Position numbers and translations under genes: made by a program. From the NCBI GenBank assembly GCA_947650365.1, contig OX393554.1:39467200-39531199 (forward strand): DNA of 64,000 bases, given 5' to 3'. The notes under the pieces were generated by a model that saw only the letters and a list, made by a program, of their open reading frames with translations, was not told the origin of the DNA and searched no databases. Of this stretch, positions 2,061-42,698 are shown one piece after another; position 1 is the first letter of the stretch, and every line of letters begins with the position of its first letter. The stretch is from Chamaelirium japonicum (lineage: Eukaryota; Streptophyta; Magnoliopsida; Liliales; Melanthiaceae).

Positions 2061-2298
2061 TTATTCATTCAGGATTTTCATTGTGGAGCATGCCCTCATC
2101 ACTGTTATGAATACATTTTCAATATCCCTGATTCTGTCAGCTTTGATGGTTGGAAGGGCCAGCCTTTATAGATCCGTTGATAAAATGGCAAATAATGGAG
2201 GATGTCATCTGAAAACAAATCATGTTGTATTGTCTAGTATTTATTTACCTCCATCATGTATGCAAACACGTAACTGAATTTTATTTGAGAATCAACAG

Positions 2299-2408
2299 TG
2301 TTAGATACCCTCACGCCCCAAAACCCGATTTGTAAGAGGAGGTCCACATGGGGTATATTAAATGGGTGATGAGTGCCTCCTCCACCGATATGGGACTATT
2401 CGTCAACA
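2299..2408 (-). repeat. TRIM LTR a (minus)
   Basis: 110-bp LTR, read on the plus strand from TGTTAGATACC to GTCAACA. It forms the left outer end of the composite and lies next to the left AACAG duplication. Confidence 0.85.
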
Positions 2409-2529
2409 CTCCTCATGCGGAGCACGCATGGCAATGATCCTCCCACGCGGAGCACGCGTGGCAAGGCACGATTGGTGGGGAGCACCCGAAGCGGGAGCAT
2501 GAGCAGGAGACGGATCAGCTCTGATACCA

Positions 2530-2639
2530 TGTTAGATACCCTCACACCCCAAAATCCGGATCGTAAGGGGAGGTCCATAACGGGTATATTAAGTGGTTGA
2601 TGGGTGCCTCCCTCATCGATGTGGGACTGACCGTTAACA
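2530..2639 (-). repeat. TRIM LTR b (minus)
   Basis: 110-bp LTR directly preceded on the plus strand by GCTCTGATACCA (2518-2529), the reverse complement of the tRNA-Met primer-binding site. The orientation switch of the array lies just to its right, at about 2680. Confidence 0.85.
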
Positions 2640-2756
2640 CTTCCCCTCACGCGGAGCACGCGAGGCAAGGCCCGATCGGTGGTCCCCACCGATCGTGCCT
2701 TGCCACATGTTTCTCCGCGTGGGAGGATCTTTGCCACTCGTGCTCCGCGTGAGGAG

Positions 2757-2865
2757 TGTGGACGAATAGTCCCACATCGGTGAGGGAGGCACCCATCACC
2801 CATTTAATATACACCCTGTGGACCTCCCCTTACGACCCTGGTTTTGGGGCGTGAAGGTATCTAAC
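2757..2865 (+). repeat. TRIM LTR c (plus)
   Basis: 109-bp LTR starting TGTGGACG and ending TCTAACA, followed at once by the primer-binding site TGGTATCAGAGC (2866-2877). Confidence 0.85.
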
Positions 2866-2949
2866 ATGGTATCAGAGCTAGCCCATTTCCTGCTCTTGCT
2901 CTTGATTCTGGTGCTCCCTATCGATCGTGCCTTGCCACGTGTGGGGGAG

Positions 2950-3735
2950 TGTTAACGGATAATCCCACGTGCACATCGGTGAGGGAGGCACCCATCACTC
3001 ACTTTATATGTTGAAGATATGGCTCCAAACAAACCACATACAACTCCAATGCTCGTTCGCGAAGAAACGGCAGAAGACGAAGCTTCGGGAGCAAGGAAGG
3101 GTCGGCCAGGAAGAGTCGTGCCCACGATTGGCATCGACAGAAAAGTCGGACGAGAAGACGGGTCAGGTCGTGCGCATGACTGTGGTTGGCAGAACGCGGG
3201 ACGCTTTTTTGCGTGCGTTTTCTCGTGGGACTCCTTCCCCAAGTCGGATACGAATGTAACCCTATAAAAGGGAGGTCTTAGGACGAACCTAGGGCATCGT
3301 GGATTATCTCAAAGGCCCAAGAGAGTCCTAAGGGAGAGATTAGAAGGTAGCCATCACCAAGGGAGAGGAAGAGGAAACCATTGGAGACCTGTGGGGTTTC
3401 GGAAAGGGTTTCTTCTTGTTCTAAGGGGTTTAGGGCTGCGGGTTTTCTTCTCTCAAGGTGGGATCTCTTTGTGGGTGTATGAGGGATTGGGTAGAGGCAA
3501 TTGTAATTGTACTCGGGTTTTTCCCATACTAGTAAATCTAACGATCGGTCGTTGCCAGAATTTCTTGGGTGTTTTGCTTGTTCTTTCTATACTCTCGGTC
3601 TTGTCAGTGGTCGTCTTCACCGTGGTACTTATATGCTCATCGTGTTCCGCTGCGCGAGGACCTCGGATCGCAACATTATGTACCCTCTATGGACCTCCCC
3701 TTACGACCCGGGTTTTGAGGTGTGAGGGTATTAAC
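2950..3735 (+). repeat. TRIM LTR d (plus), split by a nested solo LTR
   Basis: The LTR starts at TGTTAACGG and ends TATTAACA before a second primer-binding site at 3736-3747. Its middle is interrupted at 3009-3675. Removing that insert gives a normal-length TRIM LTR. Confidence 0.85.
3009..3675 (+). mobile_element. Solo LTR nested in TRIM LTR d
   Basis: A 667-bp sequence starting TGTTGAAG and ending CGCAACA, flanked by TTATA (3004-3008) and TTATG (3676-3680), a 5-bp duplication with one change. It contains a TATA box (TATAAAA, 3263-3269) at the place expected for an LTR promoter. No internal coding region or second LTR is present, so it is a solo LTR left after LTR-LTR recombination. Confidence 0.8.
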
Positions 3736-3845
3736 ATGGTATCAGAGCTGACCTGTCATCTGCTCCTGCTCCCCACCGATCGTGCCTTGCCACACGTGCT
3801 CGCCGTGGGAGGATCCTTGCCACGTGTGTTCTGCGTGAGGGAAAG

Positions 3846-3953
3846 TGTTGACAAGTAGTCACACATCGGTGAGGGAGGCACCCATCACCCGTTTAATATA
3901 CCCCGGTGGACCTCCCCTTACGACCTGGGTTTTGGGACGCAAGGTATCTAACA
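3846..3953 (+). repeat. TRIM LTR e (plus)
   Basis: 108-bp LTR starting TGTTGACA and ending TCTAACA. It forms the right outer end of the composite and abuts the right AACAG duplication. A purine stretch (gagggaaag) before it fits a polypurine tract. Confidence 0.85.
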
Positions 3954-4068
3954 AACAGATTTAAAAAAGGCAATATATATATTACCAAATTATAATATTC
4001 TGCACTGTTTTAAGACTGATTTGAATACATCGGCATGAGATTTGTGTTTCGCTCTGTAAAAACTGCAG

Positions 4069-31589: not shown

Positions 31590-33705
31590 TGTTGGGAAAT
31601 TAATCCTTGATAGAGGCTCGCAGCGGAAGCGATTTGGCGGTCGAAAGACCGTTCATGGTGCACGTTACACGATTTAAACTTTTATCGAAACTAATCTACA
31701 TATGTGTGCATGTGAATGCACGTGAATCATAGCGTAATGATTAACTAGCATGGATGCAAATAATAATGCTCGCTAGATCTACATGTTAGATTACACATAC
31801 CTTTCGTACGGATCTTTTAACCGCGGAGAATTGTCTTCTTTGTCGATGGAGACTGAAGATCGTTCGCGAAGATGCCGATGGTACGATTGGAGATGTTGCC
31901 TTCTTGTTCACCCGATCTCACACGATGCACGGAACGTCGCTCTCGGATCTCTGAGTGCCTCCGAAGAATGACCCTTCTCCTTCTTCAGAACTCCATGCGA
32001 GGAAGACGAAGTAGCAAGCGGGAAACGGGAGATAGATTAGGGAGAGAACTAGAGAGATGAGAGCAGAGGGGGTTCGGTTTTTGCTCACATAGGGCCGGCG
32101 CCCTATAGGCCCTTTTATAGGGCCGGCCTAACCCCTTGGATAAGGATCCAAGGGGATAAAGACCTCCCACAATTATCTCTCCATTATCTCCTTTTTATCT
32201 CTCCACGTATTTATCCGTTTTCCCACTTTTTAGGGCTCGACTTTATCCGTTTTATCGCCCTATCCCTATCTATATGGCCGGCCCTATAGATGAGGGATTC
32301 TTATCCCTACATCATAGGGCCGGCCCTAGCAAGGTGTCCCACTACTAGGGTCGGCCAACAGTGAGGTCCGACAGAGTGAGGTTTTTACCAAAACGCCCTG
32401 ACGCCTCATTTTGACCATTTCTAGCGTACGATACCTAGCGGCCATTACTTAAGTGATATCTACTAGTTACCTACTATTAACTGAGGCCACCGAAGGGTGC
32501 CTCTAGCAAAGTCAACTAGTCAACTCGCAACATACCCCGGTGCATCGCACCTATGCAGCGAAGTTCACTTACGGCTAGGGATTACTACATGCGACTCTGT
32601 ACTAGTCTCGGGCTTAACCCATAGTACTCGTATGTAGTTACGCATCTACCGTGCTCTAGTGCCAAGCACACACAAAGCGTTTACTTCTTTCTTTCTCCTA
32701 GTGCTTATGGTGTTCCGAGGAGATGGTTCGAGAACCGTACATAATGTTGATAAGGTGGAACCATCAGGGACCGGGGTTCATGGCTTCCAACTCAAGCTCG
32801 ATCGACACACTACCCGAGTGTACCATCGATCCTCTGAGCTCGAGTTAACCTGCGTAGCCACCCAGAGTGCGACGCAGGCTGCACTCCAATTCACCCGGAC
32901 TTACTATGTTCTCCATCATACCCCTGCTCTCCGCTTAGTAGTGGTAAACCCGCTGTCCCTCCACTTGATGCCATGATTCACTTCGACCGGTGAAGACTAC
33001 CGTCAGACTCGAATGATCATATGACTTGGTTCCTTCCAGGTTGACCTATACATCGTACCTCTGATTACCCCGTCGAGTAATCGAACCCGGTCAACAGTCA
33101 AACTGGTGACCACCAGGCCTGTGTTTGGTACAGTGTAAGTCACACCAAGGAACGCACCTCCCTTCAGGGGTGTGGATGGCCTGCAGGAGTGACACGCTAA
33201 TGCAACGCCAGCCGGGTAACCCAGTACATCGTGGTTTTGGATCACTGCATACGGATCCTCACACATTGGTGCGCCAAAGCACCACGCAACTGGTTAGTCC
33301 ATCAGACGTGGTTCCTCAGGGTTTAGGACCGTTTTACCCTAAGCAGAAACACGGCTTAGTGTACCAGTGTCTGCTCACTGATCTGTACACCGTGTTAGTT
33401 CCGTTCAGCCACAGACACTGTGCCTGGTGATGACCATGGTGAAGACATCCCATGAACTGTCATCGCCAACAGCTTATCATGATGAGGCGACCAACCTGAT
33501 CATAGCTGCGAACTTATTTAGATTATATGGGACCAATCCACTCAGTCTTCAACTCAGTGGACTACCATATAACCATGGCTCTCTGTTCTTAAAAGAACAC
33601 GTAACTATGTTACGCACCTATATGCATCTCATATAATAATAACTATCAATCTTTATTAGACCAAAACATAAAGTTTTACAAGCTTAGAACACATCAATCC
33701 TAACA
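31590..33705 (-). repeat. Complete 3' LTR of the copia element
   Basis: 2,116 bp, starting TGTTAGGATTG and ending CCCAACA on the minus strand. A TATA box (CTATAAAAG, about 32122-32113 on the minus strand) lies in a GGCCGGCCCTATA-rich stretch. Confidence 0.88.
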
Positions 33706-33719
33706 ATCTCCCACTTGGT

Positions 33720-35549
33720 CTAGCGAAGCAAAACGGTTTTGACTCCCATCGCGTCCACATGTCGCTCGAATGCCTTGGTAGGTATTGCCTTTGTGAAAGG
33801 ATCAACAACATTATCTGTAGATGCAATCTGTGTCACCGCTACTCGCCCTTGCTTTTGAAACTGCCGAATCAAGTGGAACTTCTGCTCGATGTGCTTCTCC
33901 TTTTGGTGATGTCTTGGCTCCTTAGCTTGTGCTACTGCCCCACTATTGTAGCAGTAAAGCACAATAGGTAACTGGGCCTCTGGTACGCACCCCAAATCCG
34001 TAAGGAATTTCTTGAGCCATACCGCCTCTTTGGCTGCCTCGCACGCTGCAACGTACTCAGCCTCTGTGGTAGAGTCTGCGATGCATTTCTGCTTCACACT
34101 CTGTCAACTAACCGCTGCTCCTCCTAGCATAAACACAAAACCTGATGTCGACTTCCTGGATTCCAAATCTGACATAAAGTCAGAATCTGTATATCCAATC
34201 GGCGTCAGTTCTTGTCCTGTGTAAACCAACTCATAGTCCCTTGTTCTACGAAGGTACTTGAGTATACACTTCACAACTGTCCAGTGATCTGGACTCGGAT
34301 TCGACTGAAACCGACCCATCATTCCTACTACGAAACAGATATCAGGCCTTGTACAATGCATAGCATACATTAGACTACCTAATGCCGAAGTATAAGGTAT
34401 CTTCTGTATTTCTGCTCTCTCCTCGGGTGTCTTAGGACATTGATCCTTAGACAGTTTTACGCCATGTCTAAATGGCACAAAACCCTTCTTGGAGTTTTGC
34501 ATGTCAAATCTAGCCATAACCTTATCTATATACGCAGCCTGTGATAGCGAGAGAATCCTGTTCTGGCGATCACGTGTTACCTTGATCCCCAAAACATAAC
34601 TCGCTTCACCTAGGTCTTTCATATCGAACTGTGTTGACAACCAGACCTTTACCATTGATAATGTTTCTACATCATTTCCAATTAGTAGAATATCGTCTAC
34701 GTAAAGTATCAAATATACTACTGTGGTCTTATCAGTCCTCTTGTATACACATGGTTCATCCTCGTTTTGAGTAAATCCATACGACTGGATTGCCTGATCA
34801 AAACGGATGTTCCAACTTCTAGATGCTTGCTTTAGTCCATAAATGGACTTCTGCAACTTGCAAACTAGATATTCCTGACCCTCTGACTCAAAGCCTGGTG
34901 GCTGAATCATATAAATGTCTTCTTCCAAATTCCCGTTGAGGAATGCTGTCTTGACATCCATTTGCCAGATCTCCTAGTCATAATGGGCTGCAATGGATAG
35001 GAGGATCCAAATAGACTTTATCATAGCCACCGGCGAGAAGGTTTCGTCAAAGTCGATTCCTTCTCTCTGGGTATAACCCTTGGCAACTAATCTAGCTTTA
35101 TAAGTCTCTATTATACCATCGGATCCTCTCTTCTTCTTGTACACCCACTTACACCCAATAGGTTTAATATTGGATGATGGTGTAACTAGAGTCCAGACAG
35201 CGTTATGGGACATTGATGCAATTTCTGCCTCCATAGCTTTTTGCCAGTCAGAGCTGTCAGAAGCTCCCACTGCCTCATCGTAGCTCAGTGGGTCATCCTC
35301 CTGACCCTCTGGATCAACCAATAAGGTCTCTCCATAGTATCTGTCAGGAGCTCTGATGCTTCTCCCACTGCGACGAGGTGGTGGTGGTGTTACAGGATGA
35401 ATAGGTTCTACAGTTTCTGGTATATTAGTGTCTGTAATGTCAGCTCCCACTATGCTTTCGGATGCGCTCTCTGATCTAGTACCCAGTAGCTCATCCAGAA
35501 CTACCTTACTAGCAGGCTTGTGGTCCATAATATAATCATGTTCTAGCAA
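33720..35549 (-). pseudogene. Ty1-copia pol remnant: reverse transcriptase and RNase H
   Basis: Three open pieces in one frame. 35549-34974 covers the linker after integrase and the RT start ([20 protein letters not shown]). 34961-34104 covers the RT core (MDVKTAFLNG, ILYVDDILLIGN with the catalytic YVDD, then KSTSGFVFMLGG of RNase H). 34097-33720 covers the RNase H end (DSTTEAEYVAACEAAKEAVW, HIEQKFHLIR). The pieces are separated by two single in-frame stop codons, at about 34971-34973 and 34107-34109. No frameshift was seen. The enzyme cannot be made from this copy as it stands. Confidence 0.9.
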
Positions 35550-36921
35550 GGTGTCCCACTACTAGGGTCGGCCAACAGTGAGGTCCGGCAGAGTGAGGTT
35601 TTTACCAAAACGCCCTGACGCCTCATTTTGACCATTTCTAGCGTGCGATACCTAGCGGCCATTACTTAAGTGATATCTACTAGTTACCTACTATTAACTG
35701 AGGCCACCGAAGGGTGCCTCTAGCAAAGTCAACTAGTCAACTCGCAACATACCCCGGTGCATCGCACCTATGCAGCGAAGTTCACTTATGGCTAGGGATT
35801 ACTACATGCGACTCTGTACTAGTCTCGGGCTTAACCCATAGTACTCGTATGTAGTTACGCATCTACCGTGCTCTAGTGCCAAGCACACACGGAGCGTTTA
35901 CTTCTTTCTTCCTCCTAGTGCTTATGGTGTTCCGAGGAGATGGTTCGAGAACCATACATAATGTTGATAAGGTGGAACCATCAGGGACCGGGGTTCATGG
36001 CTTCCAACTCAAGCTCGATCGACACACTACCCGAGTGTACCATCGATCCTCTGAGCTCGAGTTAACCTGCGTAGCCACCCAGAGTGCGATGCAGGCTGCA
36101 CTCCAATTCACCCGGACTTACTATGTTCTCCATCATACCCCTGCTCTCCGCTTAGTAGTGGTAAACCCGCTGTCCCTCCACTTGATGCCATGATTCACTT
36201 CGAGCGGTGAAGACTACCGTCAAACTCGAATGATCATATGACTTGGTTCCTTCCAGGTTGACCTATACATCGTACCTCTGATTACCCCGTCGAGTAATCG
36301 AACCCGGTCAACAGTCAAACTGGTGACCACCAGGCCTGGTTTGGTACAGTGTAAGTCACACCAAGGAACGCACCTCCCTTCAGGGGTGTGGATGGCCTGC
36401 AGGAGTGACATGCTAATGCAACGCCAGCCGGGTAACCCAGTACACCGTGGTTTTGGATCACTGCATACAGATCCTCACACATTGGTGCGCCAAAGCACCA
36501 CGGAACTGGTTAGTCCATCAGACGTGGTTCCTCAGGGTTTAGGACCGTTTTACCCTAAGCAGAAACACGGCTTAGTGTACCAGTGTCTGCTCACTGATCT
36601 GTACACCGTGTTAGTTTCGTTCAGCCACTGACACTGTGCCTGGTGATGACCATGGTGAAGACATCCCATGAACTGTCATCGCCAACAGCTTATCATGATG
36701 AGGCGACCAACCTGATCATAGCTGCGAACTTATTTAGATTATATAGGACCAATCCACTCAGTCTTCAACTCAGTGGACTACTATATAACCATGGCTCTCT
36801 GTTCTTAAAAGAACACGTAACTATGTTACGCACCTATATGCATCTCATATAATAATAACTATCAATCTTTATTAGACCAAAACATAAAGTTTTACAAGCT
36901 TAGAATACATCAATCCTAATA
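35543..36921 (-). repeat. Truncated 5' LTR of the copia element
   Basis: Corresponds to 32336-33705 of the complete LTR. The outermost dinucleotide reads TA instead of TG on the minus strand. It is joined directly to pol at a shared CTAGCAAGG. Confidence 0.88.
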
Positions 36922-42356: not shown

Positions 42357-42693
42357 TGTTGGGTTTAGTCCCACATCGGCTAGGAGCTAGGCAGTGGTGT
42401 CTTCATATACCCTATGTGGACCTTCCCTTACGACACATACATATCGGAGCGGATTTTGTCTAGCTAGGTTCTAGTTGGGCCAAGGTATGGTCAGGTTGTG
42501 CCAAAGGTGTGCCACTTTTCTGGCTCCTCCCGCATGAGAGGGGGGCCGATGGGTGTTCAGCCCTAACTACATGTGAGGAGGGAATTGTTGGATTTAGTCC
42601 TACATCATATATGGACTGGACAATGATGTCTTCGTATAACCTCTGTAGACCTCCCCTTACGACCTTGGTTTTGGGGCGAGAGAGTATTCAACA
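42357..42693 (+). mobile_element. Complete single TRIM retrotransposon with 5-bp target duplication
   Basis: 337 bp. The LTRs start TGTTGGGTTTAGTCC (42357) and TGTTGGATTTAGTCC (42586), and the second ends TATTCAACA (42693). Both sides are flanked by ACTTA (42352-42356 and 42694-42698). The shared block 'gacctccccttacgacc' relates it to the TRIM at 2.3-4.0 kb, but it is a different subfamily. The 3' end of the first LTR and the start of the primer site are eroded (atatcggagcgg). Confidence 0.88.
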
Positions 42694-42698
42694 ACTTA

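What the first reader, a model, noticed from the sequence alone, without database searches (positions are those of the whole stretch)
2294..3958. Palindromic five-LTR TRIM inserted as one unit
Five 110-bp TRIM LTRs in the order minus, minus, plus, plus, plus are enclosed by one perfect AACAG duplication. Tandem TRIM arrays are known, but a head-to-head composite whose outer ends are inverted and which still carries a single duplication implies that the rearranged molecule itself was integrated, or that an inversion happened inside an array without touching its outer borders. The orientation switch at about 2680 lies between two inverted internal segments (agcacgcgaggcaaggc / gccttgccacatg), which could fold back during reverse transcription.
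Basis: partly seen in the sequence, partly recalled or inferred. Interest (0 to 1): 0.75.

Follow-up and report, generated by a model that had tools for sequence, protein, structure and literature searches.

The report
Fold-back plant mini-retrotransposon inserted whole
A tiny plant retrotransposon array seems to have folded back on itself while being copied into DNA and then to have inserted as one piece, and other copies in the same genome did the like in their own way, often at one palindrome near the predicted start of the element's RNA.

Summary
Confirmed, with corrections. Five ~110-bp TRIM LTRs (-,-,+,+,+) lie inside one perfect AACAG duplication; LTR4 is split by a 667-bp LTR of another family. 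Both outer ends are U5 ends. The switch (2664-2704) sits on a hairpin common in the family. The block has five PPT-side but three PBS-side internal ends (a plain five-LTR array has four of each), so inversion inside a finished array does not explain it. In the host genome (1.52 Gb, unnamed plant) the whole junction was found only here among 40 scored of 1284 candidates. But 10 of 39 other loci are inverted composites with other junctions, 7 of the 10 with perfect 5-bp duplications. Many switch at a palindrome (AACCCGGGTT, LTR 78-87), 30 bp below a TATA-like box; genome-wide there are 11 exact U5|U5 fold-back palindromes (8-10 independent) against 701 normal contexts. Best reading: template switching during reverse transcription, then integration through two U5 ends. 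The composite does not look like a transposing unit; the process recurs. An inverted TRIM composite with one duplication is already reported in maize, so this is a new variant of a known kind.

The parts
2294..2298 (.). left target-site duplication AACAG
   Evidence: matches 3954-3958
2299..2408 (-). LTR1, type X; outer end is the U5 end
2409..2529 (-). internal A with PBS side (TGGTATCAGAGCT on minus strand) and PPT side, two 30-bp units
2530..2639 (-). LTR2, type Y
2640..2681 (-). internal B, PPT side only, one 30-bp unit
2664..2704 (.). orientation switch: 18-nt arms round a 5-nt centre (GGTG-GTCCC-CACC); fits fold-back on the family hairpin GGTG-N5-CACC with 1-2 mismatches in 41 nt
2682..2756 (+). 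internal C, PPT side only, two 30-bp units
2757..2866 (+). LTR3, type X
2867..2949 (+). internal D with PBS and PPT sides, short form
2950..3008 (+). LTR4, type Y, first part
3009..3675 (+). nested solo LTR of another, high-copy family (flanks TTATA 3004-3008 / TTATG 3676-3680); later insertion, not part of the composite
3681..3736 (+). LTR4, second part
3737..3845 (+). internal E with PBS and PPT sides, two 30-bp units
3846..3953 (+). LTR5, type X; outer end is the U5 end
3954..3958 (.). right target-site duplication AACAG

Best explanation
The block is a TRIM (non-coding mini LTR retrotransposon, type X/Y tandem array) cDNA that became a palindrome during reverse transcription and was then integrated once. 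A minus strand that had copied LTR-internal-LTR and part of the next internal stalled at the hairpin GGTG-N5-CACC and continued on a minus strand, a longer one or its own, instead of on RNA. That reversed orientation and put a U5 end at both termini. Integrase joined the two U5 ends to chromosomal DNA, making one 5-bp duplication. Shown: single duplication, U5/U5 ends, palindromic centre on a hairpin common in the family, unequal PBS/PPT end counts, X/Y alternation in both arms, several independent analogues in the same genome. Inferred: that reverse transcriptase did the switching, which strand was template, and that integrase used both U5 ends. In the analogues the commonest switch point is the palindrome AACCCGGGTT at LTR 78-87, near the predicted RNA 5' end, which fits self-priming or dimerisation of minus-strand strong-stop DNA.
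For: Perfect AACAG and U5 outer ends. Centre 2664-2704 differs from the predicted fold-back at 1-2 of 41 positions; GGTG-N5-CACC intact in 54 of 76 regex matches in other loci. PPT-side ends 5 (A-E), PBS-side 3 (A, D, E), read. X/Y alternation across the switch. Ten of 39 other loci inverted; seven with perfect duplications: TTAAA, TTCCC, TGGTT, CATAC, GTTAC, ATATT and ATAAT (read); AATGA in L079 from a second sample. U5 pieces outnumber U3 pieces in L040, L046, L048, L056, L062, L079. Twelve exact U5 fold-back sites, 0 for the reversed-pattern control; 11 are U5 palindromes on reading; 701 normal contexts. TATA-like box at LTR 48-55, palindrome at 78-87. Self-priming of strong-stop DNA is described for HIV-1 (PMC4668388 passages).
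Against: The arms are not mirror images: left has two LTRs, right three, and B (one unit) faces C (two units), so a plain snap-back of one molecule does not suffice; it needs a switch between two strands or a later loss of one ~230-bp unit. The window's junction was not seen elsewhere. The window switch is at the internal hairpin, not at the recurrent LTR palindrome. Four-base inverted repeats are frequent in internal A (ten rows at eight places; one in D, two in E), so the hairpin match alone is modest evidence, and of the window's own internals only A keeps both hairpin arms. U5 and U3 counts are equal in L038, L052, L044/L072 and L086; L086, and roughly L044/L072, look like balanced inversions between LTR palindromes, which genomic inversion could also make. 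L038, L041 and L063 have no perfect duplication. The RNA start is predicted, not measured. No cDNA was observed.
Confidence: 0.75

Rival explanations
1. A normal tandem TRIM array inserted at AACAG and part of it was later inverted inside the genome.
For: L086 has the layout expected from inversion between the CCCGGG palindromes of two LTRs, with a weak duplication (GAGAG) in a microsatellite; L044/L072 is similar with GTTAC. Tandem arrays are common here.
Against: Inversion keeps end counts. The window has 5 PPT-side and 3 PBS-side internal ends, and both outer ends are U5; an inversion would have to start exactly at the outer LTR border yet leave a cut internal there. L056 ends in a U5|U5 palindrome flush with its duplication.
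Confidence: 0.1
2. Two separate TRIM arrays in opposite orientation inserted side by side at the same target, and a deletion fused them.
For: LTR ends (TAACA) resemble the target AACAG, so reuse of a target is conceivable (sequence).
Against: Needs a second insertion with the same AACAG (chance about 0.001) plus a deletion joining both arms within 5 nt of register (about 5%); and the seven other composites with perfect duplications in the first sample would each need a like coincidence.
Confidence: 0.05
3. The composite is itself a transposing unit, amplified as a palindrome.
For: Outer inverted ends could in principle be used again.
Against: The window junction was not found elsewhere among 40 scored of 1284 candidates, and the composites examined have different junctions and LTR numbers. 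The one repeat, L040 on contigs C38 and C42, has the same layout and spacing and looks like a duplicate contig.
Confidence: 0.04
4. A foldback DNA transposon or MITE that merely resembles a TRIM.
For: Inverted outer ends and a short target duplication.
Against: The modules are LTR, PBS (TGGTATCAGAGC), PPT and LTR in retrotransposon order; non-inverted relatives with perfect duplications are frequent; chimeras with a Copia-like LTR share the PBS.
Confidence: 0.01

Closest known systems
[quoted passage not shown] 2016, PMC4717578, Fig. 2 legend; passages read)
   Same: inverted TRIM copies inside one target duplication (CTTCA); the paper says Zma-SMART TA-TRIMs were checked by PCR and sequencing
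   Different: 559 bp, two TRIMs; the passages I saw give no mechanism, end analysis, hairpin or palindrome ('palindrom' and 'template switch' have 0 occurrences in its text)
Template-switch complexes of Angela, Squiq and Opie (Sabot and Schulman 2007, PMC1950507; passages read)
   Same: several LTRs inside one duplication, explained by strand switching between packaged templates
   Different: same-orientation dimers; 'inverted', 'inversion', 'palindrom' and 'hairpin' have 0 occurrences in its text
Tandem Cassandra arrays (PMC7215508; passages read)
   Same: multi-LTR TRIM arrays, template switching proposed as one route
   Different: no head-to-head composites in the passages; 'head-to-head' and 'opposite orientation' have 0 occurrences
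Self-priming of HIV-1 minus-strand strong-stop DNA (PMC4668388 passages, citing Guo et al. 1997, which I did not read)
   Same: strong-stop DNA folds back at a hairpin near its 3' end and extends itself
   Different: described as aberrant, abortive cDNA; here the analogous products would sit in the genome with target duplications

Membership tests
[quoted passage not shown]
   ~110-bp LTRs; same-orientation relatives such as L036, L039, L043, L045
[quoted passage not shown]
   TGGTATCAGAGCT and purine-rich stretches next to LTRs; that this PBS fits initiator Met tRNA is recalled
[quoted passage not shown]
   83-134 nt in the copies measured; no protein search of the internal was run
[quoted passage not shown]
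   AACAG
TA-TRIM (tandemly arrayed TRIM) | three or more LTRs inside one duplication | tested here: met
   five LTRs, AACAG
TA-TRIM (tandemly arrayed TRIM) | n LTRs with n-1 internals in one orientation (usual form) | tested here: not met
   two minus and three plus LTRs; 5 PPT-side, 3 PBS-side internal ends
Template-switch complex (Sabot and Schulman) | flanking duplication plus near-identical outer LTRs | tested here: inconclusive
   duplication perfect; outer LTRs are both type X but only 83% identical, with all LTR pairs at 80-90%
Self-primed strong-stop DNA product | fold-back centre at the 3' end of minus strong-stop DNA | tested here: inconclusive
   position fits for relatives (LTR 78-87, 30 bp below the TATA-like box); not the switch point in the window block; RNA start not measured

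The most novel reading that the evidence does not exclude
This TRIM family has a regular second route of retrotransposition: because a 10-bp palindrome lies at the predicted RNA 5' end, minus-strand strong-stop DNA self-primes or dimerises into a U5|U5 palindrome. After PBS-mediated transfer at one or both ends this gives cDNA that ends in U5 on both sides, and integrase accepts it as an ordinary substrate. The window block is a related product that switched at the internal hairpin.
Probability: 0.5. Interest if true: 0.75.

Novelty: new variant of a known kind. Interest (0 to 1): 0.62.

Why it matters
Self-priming of strong-stop DNA is described as an aberrant side reaction. This genome appears to keep a fossil record of such products that went on to integrate, so switch points, end use by integrase and frequency can be read from sequence. 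It could also explain inverted TRIM composites such as the maize example, would show that two U5 ends can be integrated in vivo, and gives a source of hairpin-forming inserts.

Tried and rejected
Genomic inversion, fused neighbouring insertions, an amplified composite and a foldback DNA transposon are treated as rivals. A read or assembly fold-back artefact is rejected because the LTRs of the two arms differ by 12-20%. A plain snap-back of one molecule is rejected as the full account because the arms are out of register by one unit. A first idea that all composites share one switch point was wrong: L031 (window), L038, L052, L062 and L063 switch elsewhere.

Weak points of the counts. The script that scored duplications took the best of shifts up to 4 nt; it gave a spurious TACTA for L040 and missed L056 because small end pieces lay below its threshold; I read ATATT and ATAAT by eye. 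CATAC (L062) and GTTAC (L044/L072) assume an outer TG changed to TA. No perfect duplication was found for L038, L041/L071 or L063; L093 has 4 of 5. L086's GAGAG lies in a GA microsatellite. L050, L051 and L058 have opposite-orientation TRIM pieces about 0.1-1 kb away, which I took for separate elements and did not count. The junction statistics (8 of 15 with a breakpoint at the LTR palindrome, P about 9e-5; 4 of 15 exact, P about 0.003) rest on my reading by eye, include the window and L079, leave out the small extra fragments in L044/L072, and assume uniform breakpoints. The automatic end counts (ten composites; window, L041 and L063 not included) double-count overlapping queries in L040 and L062 and miss the last U5 in L056; I corrected these by reading. 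At least four of the 76 regex matches do not look like TRIM internals.

The exact pattern GAGGGAGGCACCCATCACCC has no match in viral contigs or genome contigs. A genome pattern search for other internal fold-backs (GATCGGTGN{1,9}CACCGATC) did not complete. Literature: 10 searches (listings only) and passages of seven papers; in these I saw no report of integrated U5|U5 palindromes in LTR retrotransposons. Most subscription papers are not held.

Full report
What is there. The block 2299-3953 holds five TRIM LTRs in the order minus, minus, plus, plus, plus, inside a perfect AACAG duplication. Reading outward from the switch, the left arm runs internal-LTR-internal-LTR and the right arm has one such unit more; each ends in the U5 end of an LTR, so both outer termini are U5 ends (TGTTAGATACC / GGTATCTAACA). 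LTR4 was later split by a 667-bp LTR of another family (3009-3675); leaving it out of the alignment gives an LTR4 colinear with the others apart from a 6-bp extra stretch and a few bases at the insertion site. That insert matched 39 further places at 81-89% among the 40 candidates scored of 6593.

Two LTR types alternate through the switch: X1 Y2 | X3 Y4 X5. Of six two-against-three sites, five support {2,4} against {1,3,5}, one supports {3,5} and none supports the arms as separate groups; four columns with more than two letters were set aside. Internal length agrees: units leading into X LTRs (A, C, E) have two 30-bp repeats, those leading into Y (B, D) one or less. So an alternating array probably existed before the orientation changed, and the join links a Y-type internal (B) to an X-type internal (C): the arms are out of register by one unit.

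The switch. At 2664-2704 two 18-nt arms surround a 5-nt centre. The normal internal carries GGTG-CTCCC-CACC at this place; 54 of 76 regex matches in the other loci keep GGTG-N5-CACC (at least four of the 76 do not look like internals), and one relative (L076) has the very GGTGGTCCCCACC of the window in normal orientation. Fold-back on this hairpin predicts the 41-nt junction with two mismatches, or one with the L076 loop. A random join of two inverted units would fall within 5 nt of register in about 5% of cases. Four-base inverted repeats are frequent in internal A, and within the window block only internal A keeps both hairpin arms, so the hairpin is support, not proof.

Why not an inversion. 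Inverting part of a finished array conserves its module ends. A five-LTR array has four PBS-side and four PPT-side internal ends; the window has three and five. Every LTR here, including both outer ones, has a PPT side next to its U3 end, which inversion of a plain array does not give.

The genome. The window lies in an unnamed 1.52-Gb assembly. A search with 2640-2756 scored 40 of 1284 candidates: only the window covers the whole junction; the other 39 match one arm at 89-92%. I annotated all 39 with LTR and internal pieces (29 cut out, ten) and read the letters of the inverted ones. Ten of 39 are inverted composites: L038, L040, L041, L044, L046, L048, L052, L056, L062, L063. Seven of these ten have perfect 5-bp duplications: L040 ATATT, L044/L072 GTTAC, L046 TTAAA, L048 TTCCC, L052 TGGTT, L056 ATAAT, L062 CATAC; L038, L041 and L063 do not. 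A second search (3737-3953) scored 40 of 2413 candidates; of its loci not yet held I fetched the first ten in list order, and one of ten (L079, duplication AATGA) is inverted. L086 was picked on purpose because its rows showed overlapping opposite matches. Counting module ends, U5 pieces outnumber U3 pieces in L040, L046, L048, L056, L062 and L079 and equal them in L038, L052, L044/L072 and L086 (corrected by reading; L041 and L063 not counted).

The recurrent palindrome. In many composites the switch falls at AACCCGGGTT, LTR 78-87, thirty bases below a TATA-like TTAATATA at 48-55. By my reading 8 of 15 switches have a breakpoint there, 4 of them exactly. L056 reads LTR-, internal-, PBS, then a perfect 56-bp U5|U5 palindrome, flush with its duplication. 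Genome-wide the exact U5 fold-back core CTCAAAACCCGGGTTTTGAG occurs at 12 sites, with none for the reversed control pattern. I read all 12: 11 are U5 palindromes and one (L090) is an LTR in normal orientation. L094 and L097 share flanks on opposite strands and are one insertion; L091/L092 and L095/L096 lie 1.2 and 0.8 kb apart and could each belong to one composite; so 8 to 10 insertions are independent. At eight of the ten distinct sites the palindrome has a PBS on one side and DNA not recognised as TRIM on the other (L056, L087, L088, L091, L092, L093, L094, L096); in L089 a PBS lies on both sides; L095 has an LTR fragment on one side. Short views of the far ends of five of these reached another array unit in L088, L091 and L094, an LTR of opposite orientation in L096, and in L093 an LTR end with a 4-of-5 duplication. 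The opposite fold-back (U3-R|R-U3) occurs at 2 exact sites. The normal context CTTACAACCCGGGTTTTGAG occurs 701 times.

Mechanism. If RNA starts near LTR 78, minus-strand strong-stop DNA ends in a self-complementary 3' end. Self-priming, or pairing of two strong-stop DNAs, would give U5|U5; copying the tRNA primer would add a PBS; PBS-mediated transfer at one end gives the terminal palindromes, at both ends the central ones (L040, L044, L046, L089). Self-priming from HIV-1 strong-stop DNA is described and is suppressed by nucleocapsid (PMC4668388 passages). The window uses the same principle at another hairpin. Double switches would explain L086 and probably L044. The sequence structures are shown; the enzymatic steps are inferred.

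A likely helper. In L033, L049, L054, L069, L082 and L083 the end of an LTR of another family sits directly upstream of the TRIM PBS and internal; in five of the six a start was found, giving 128-140 bp (not in L033). L052 carries the last part of that LTR at its switch. In L082 it follows the end of a reading frame that looks to me like Copia RNase H (not tested against a family library), and in L082 and L049 TTTGAGGGGGAG precedes the LTR. Shared PBS, LTR ends and PPT suggest that a Copia element supplies the enzymes.

Known context. Tandem TRIMs are common, and Gao et al. [quoted passage not shown] 2 legend). So a head-to-head composite with one duplication is not new in kind. A 2025 survey of tandem LTR retrotransposons has 'inverted' only in its reference list (PMC11899658). 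What I did not see in the passages of seven papers or the listings of ten searches is the U5-ended, palindrome-guided class with several independent integrated members.

Limits. One genome, unnamed. A window gene of MND1-interacting protein 1 type matches Canna, Ensete, Colocasia and Cocos at 50-55%, but also Pistacia, a dicot, at 52%, so it is a plant, perhaps a monocot. The samples are best-scoring hits, not random ones. Switch points were read by eye. RNA start, cDNA and orthologous sites were not available.

Noticed in passing
window 3009-3675: Nested 667-bp LTR of another family (TGTTG..CAACA, flanks TTATA/TTATG); 39 of the 40 scored genome candidates are this element, two pairs of them about 1.8 kb apart.
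   Followed up: partly
window 42358-42694: A second TRIM-like element with part of the same U5 region (GACCTCCCCTTACGACC..TTTTGGGGCG) but a different U3, next to a long CT/GT microsatellite.
   Followed up: no
L033, L049, L054, L069, L082, L083: Chimeras in which a Copia-like LTR directly precedes TRIM PBS, internal and LTR; points to the likely helper element and to template switching between families.
   Followed up: partly
L087 and L092: TRIM U5 palindromes whose PBS is followed by an internal region that does not look like the TRIM's.
   Followed up: no
window 32326-33703 and 35543-36919: Two 1.38-kb direct repeats, 98.5% identical, flanking a Copia-type RT reading frame on the minus strand (34104-34973, RVT_2): probably a young, shortened Copia element.
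   Followed up: no
G000 C3:22.6-23.3 Mb: The same three-part TRIM layout appears five times with equal spacing in the rows, so it has probably been copied by segmental duplication.
   Followed up: no
G000 C38/C42 and C10/C398: Pairs of contigs carry the same insertion with the same layout or flanks, probably alternative haplotype or duplicate contigs.
   Followed up: no
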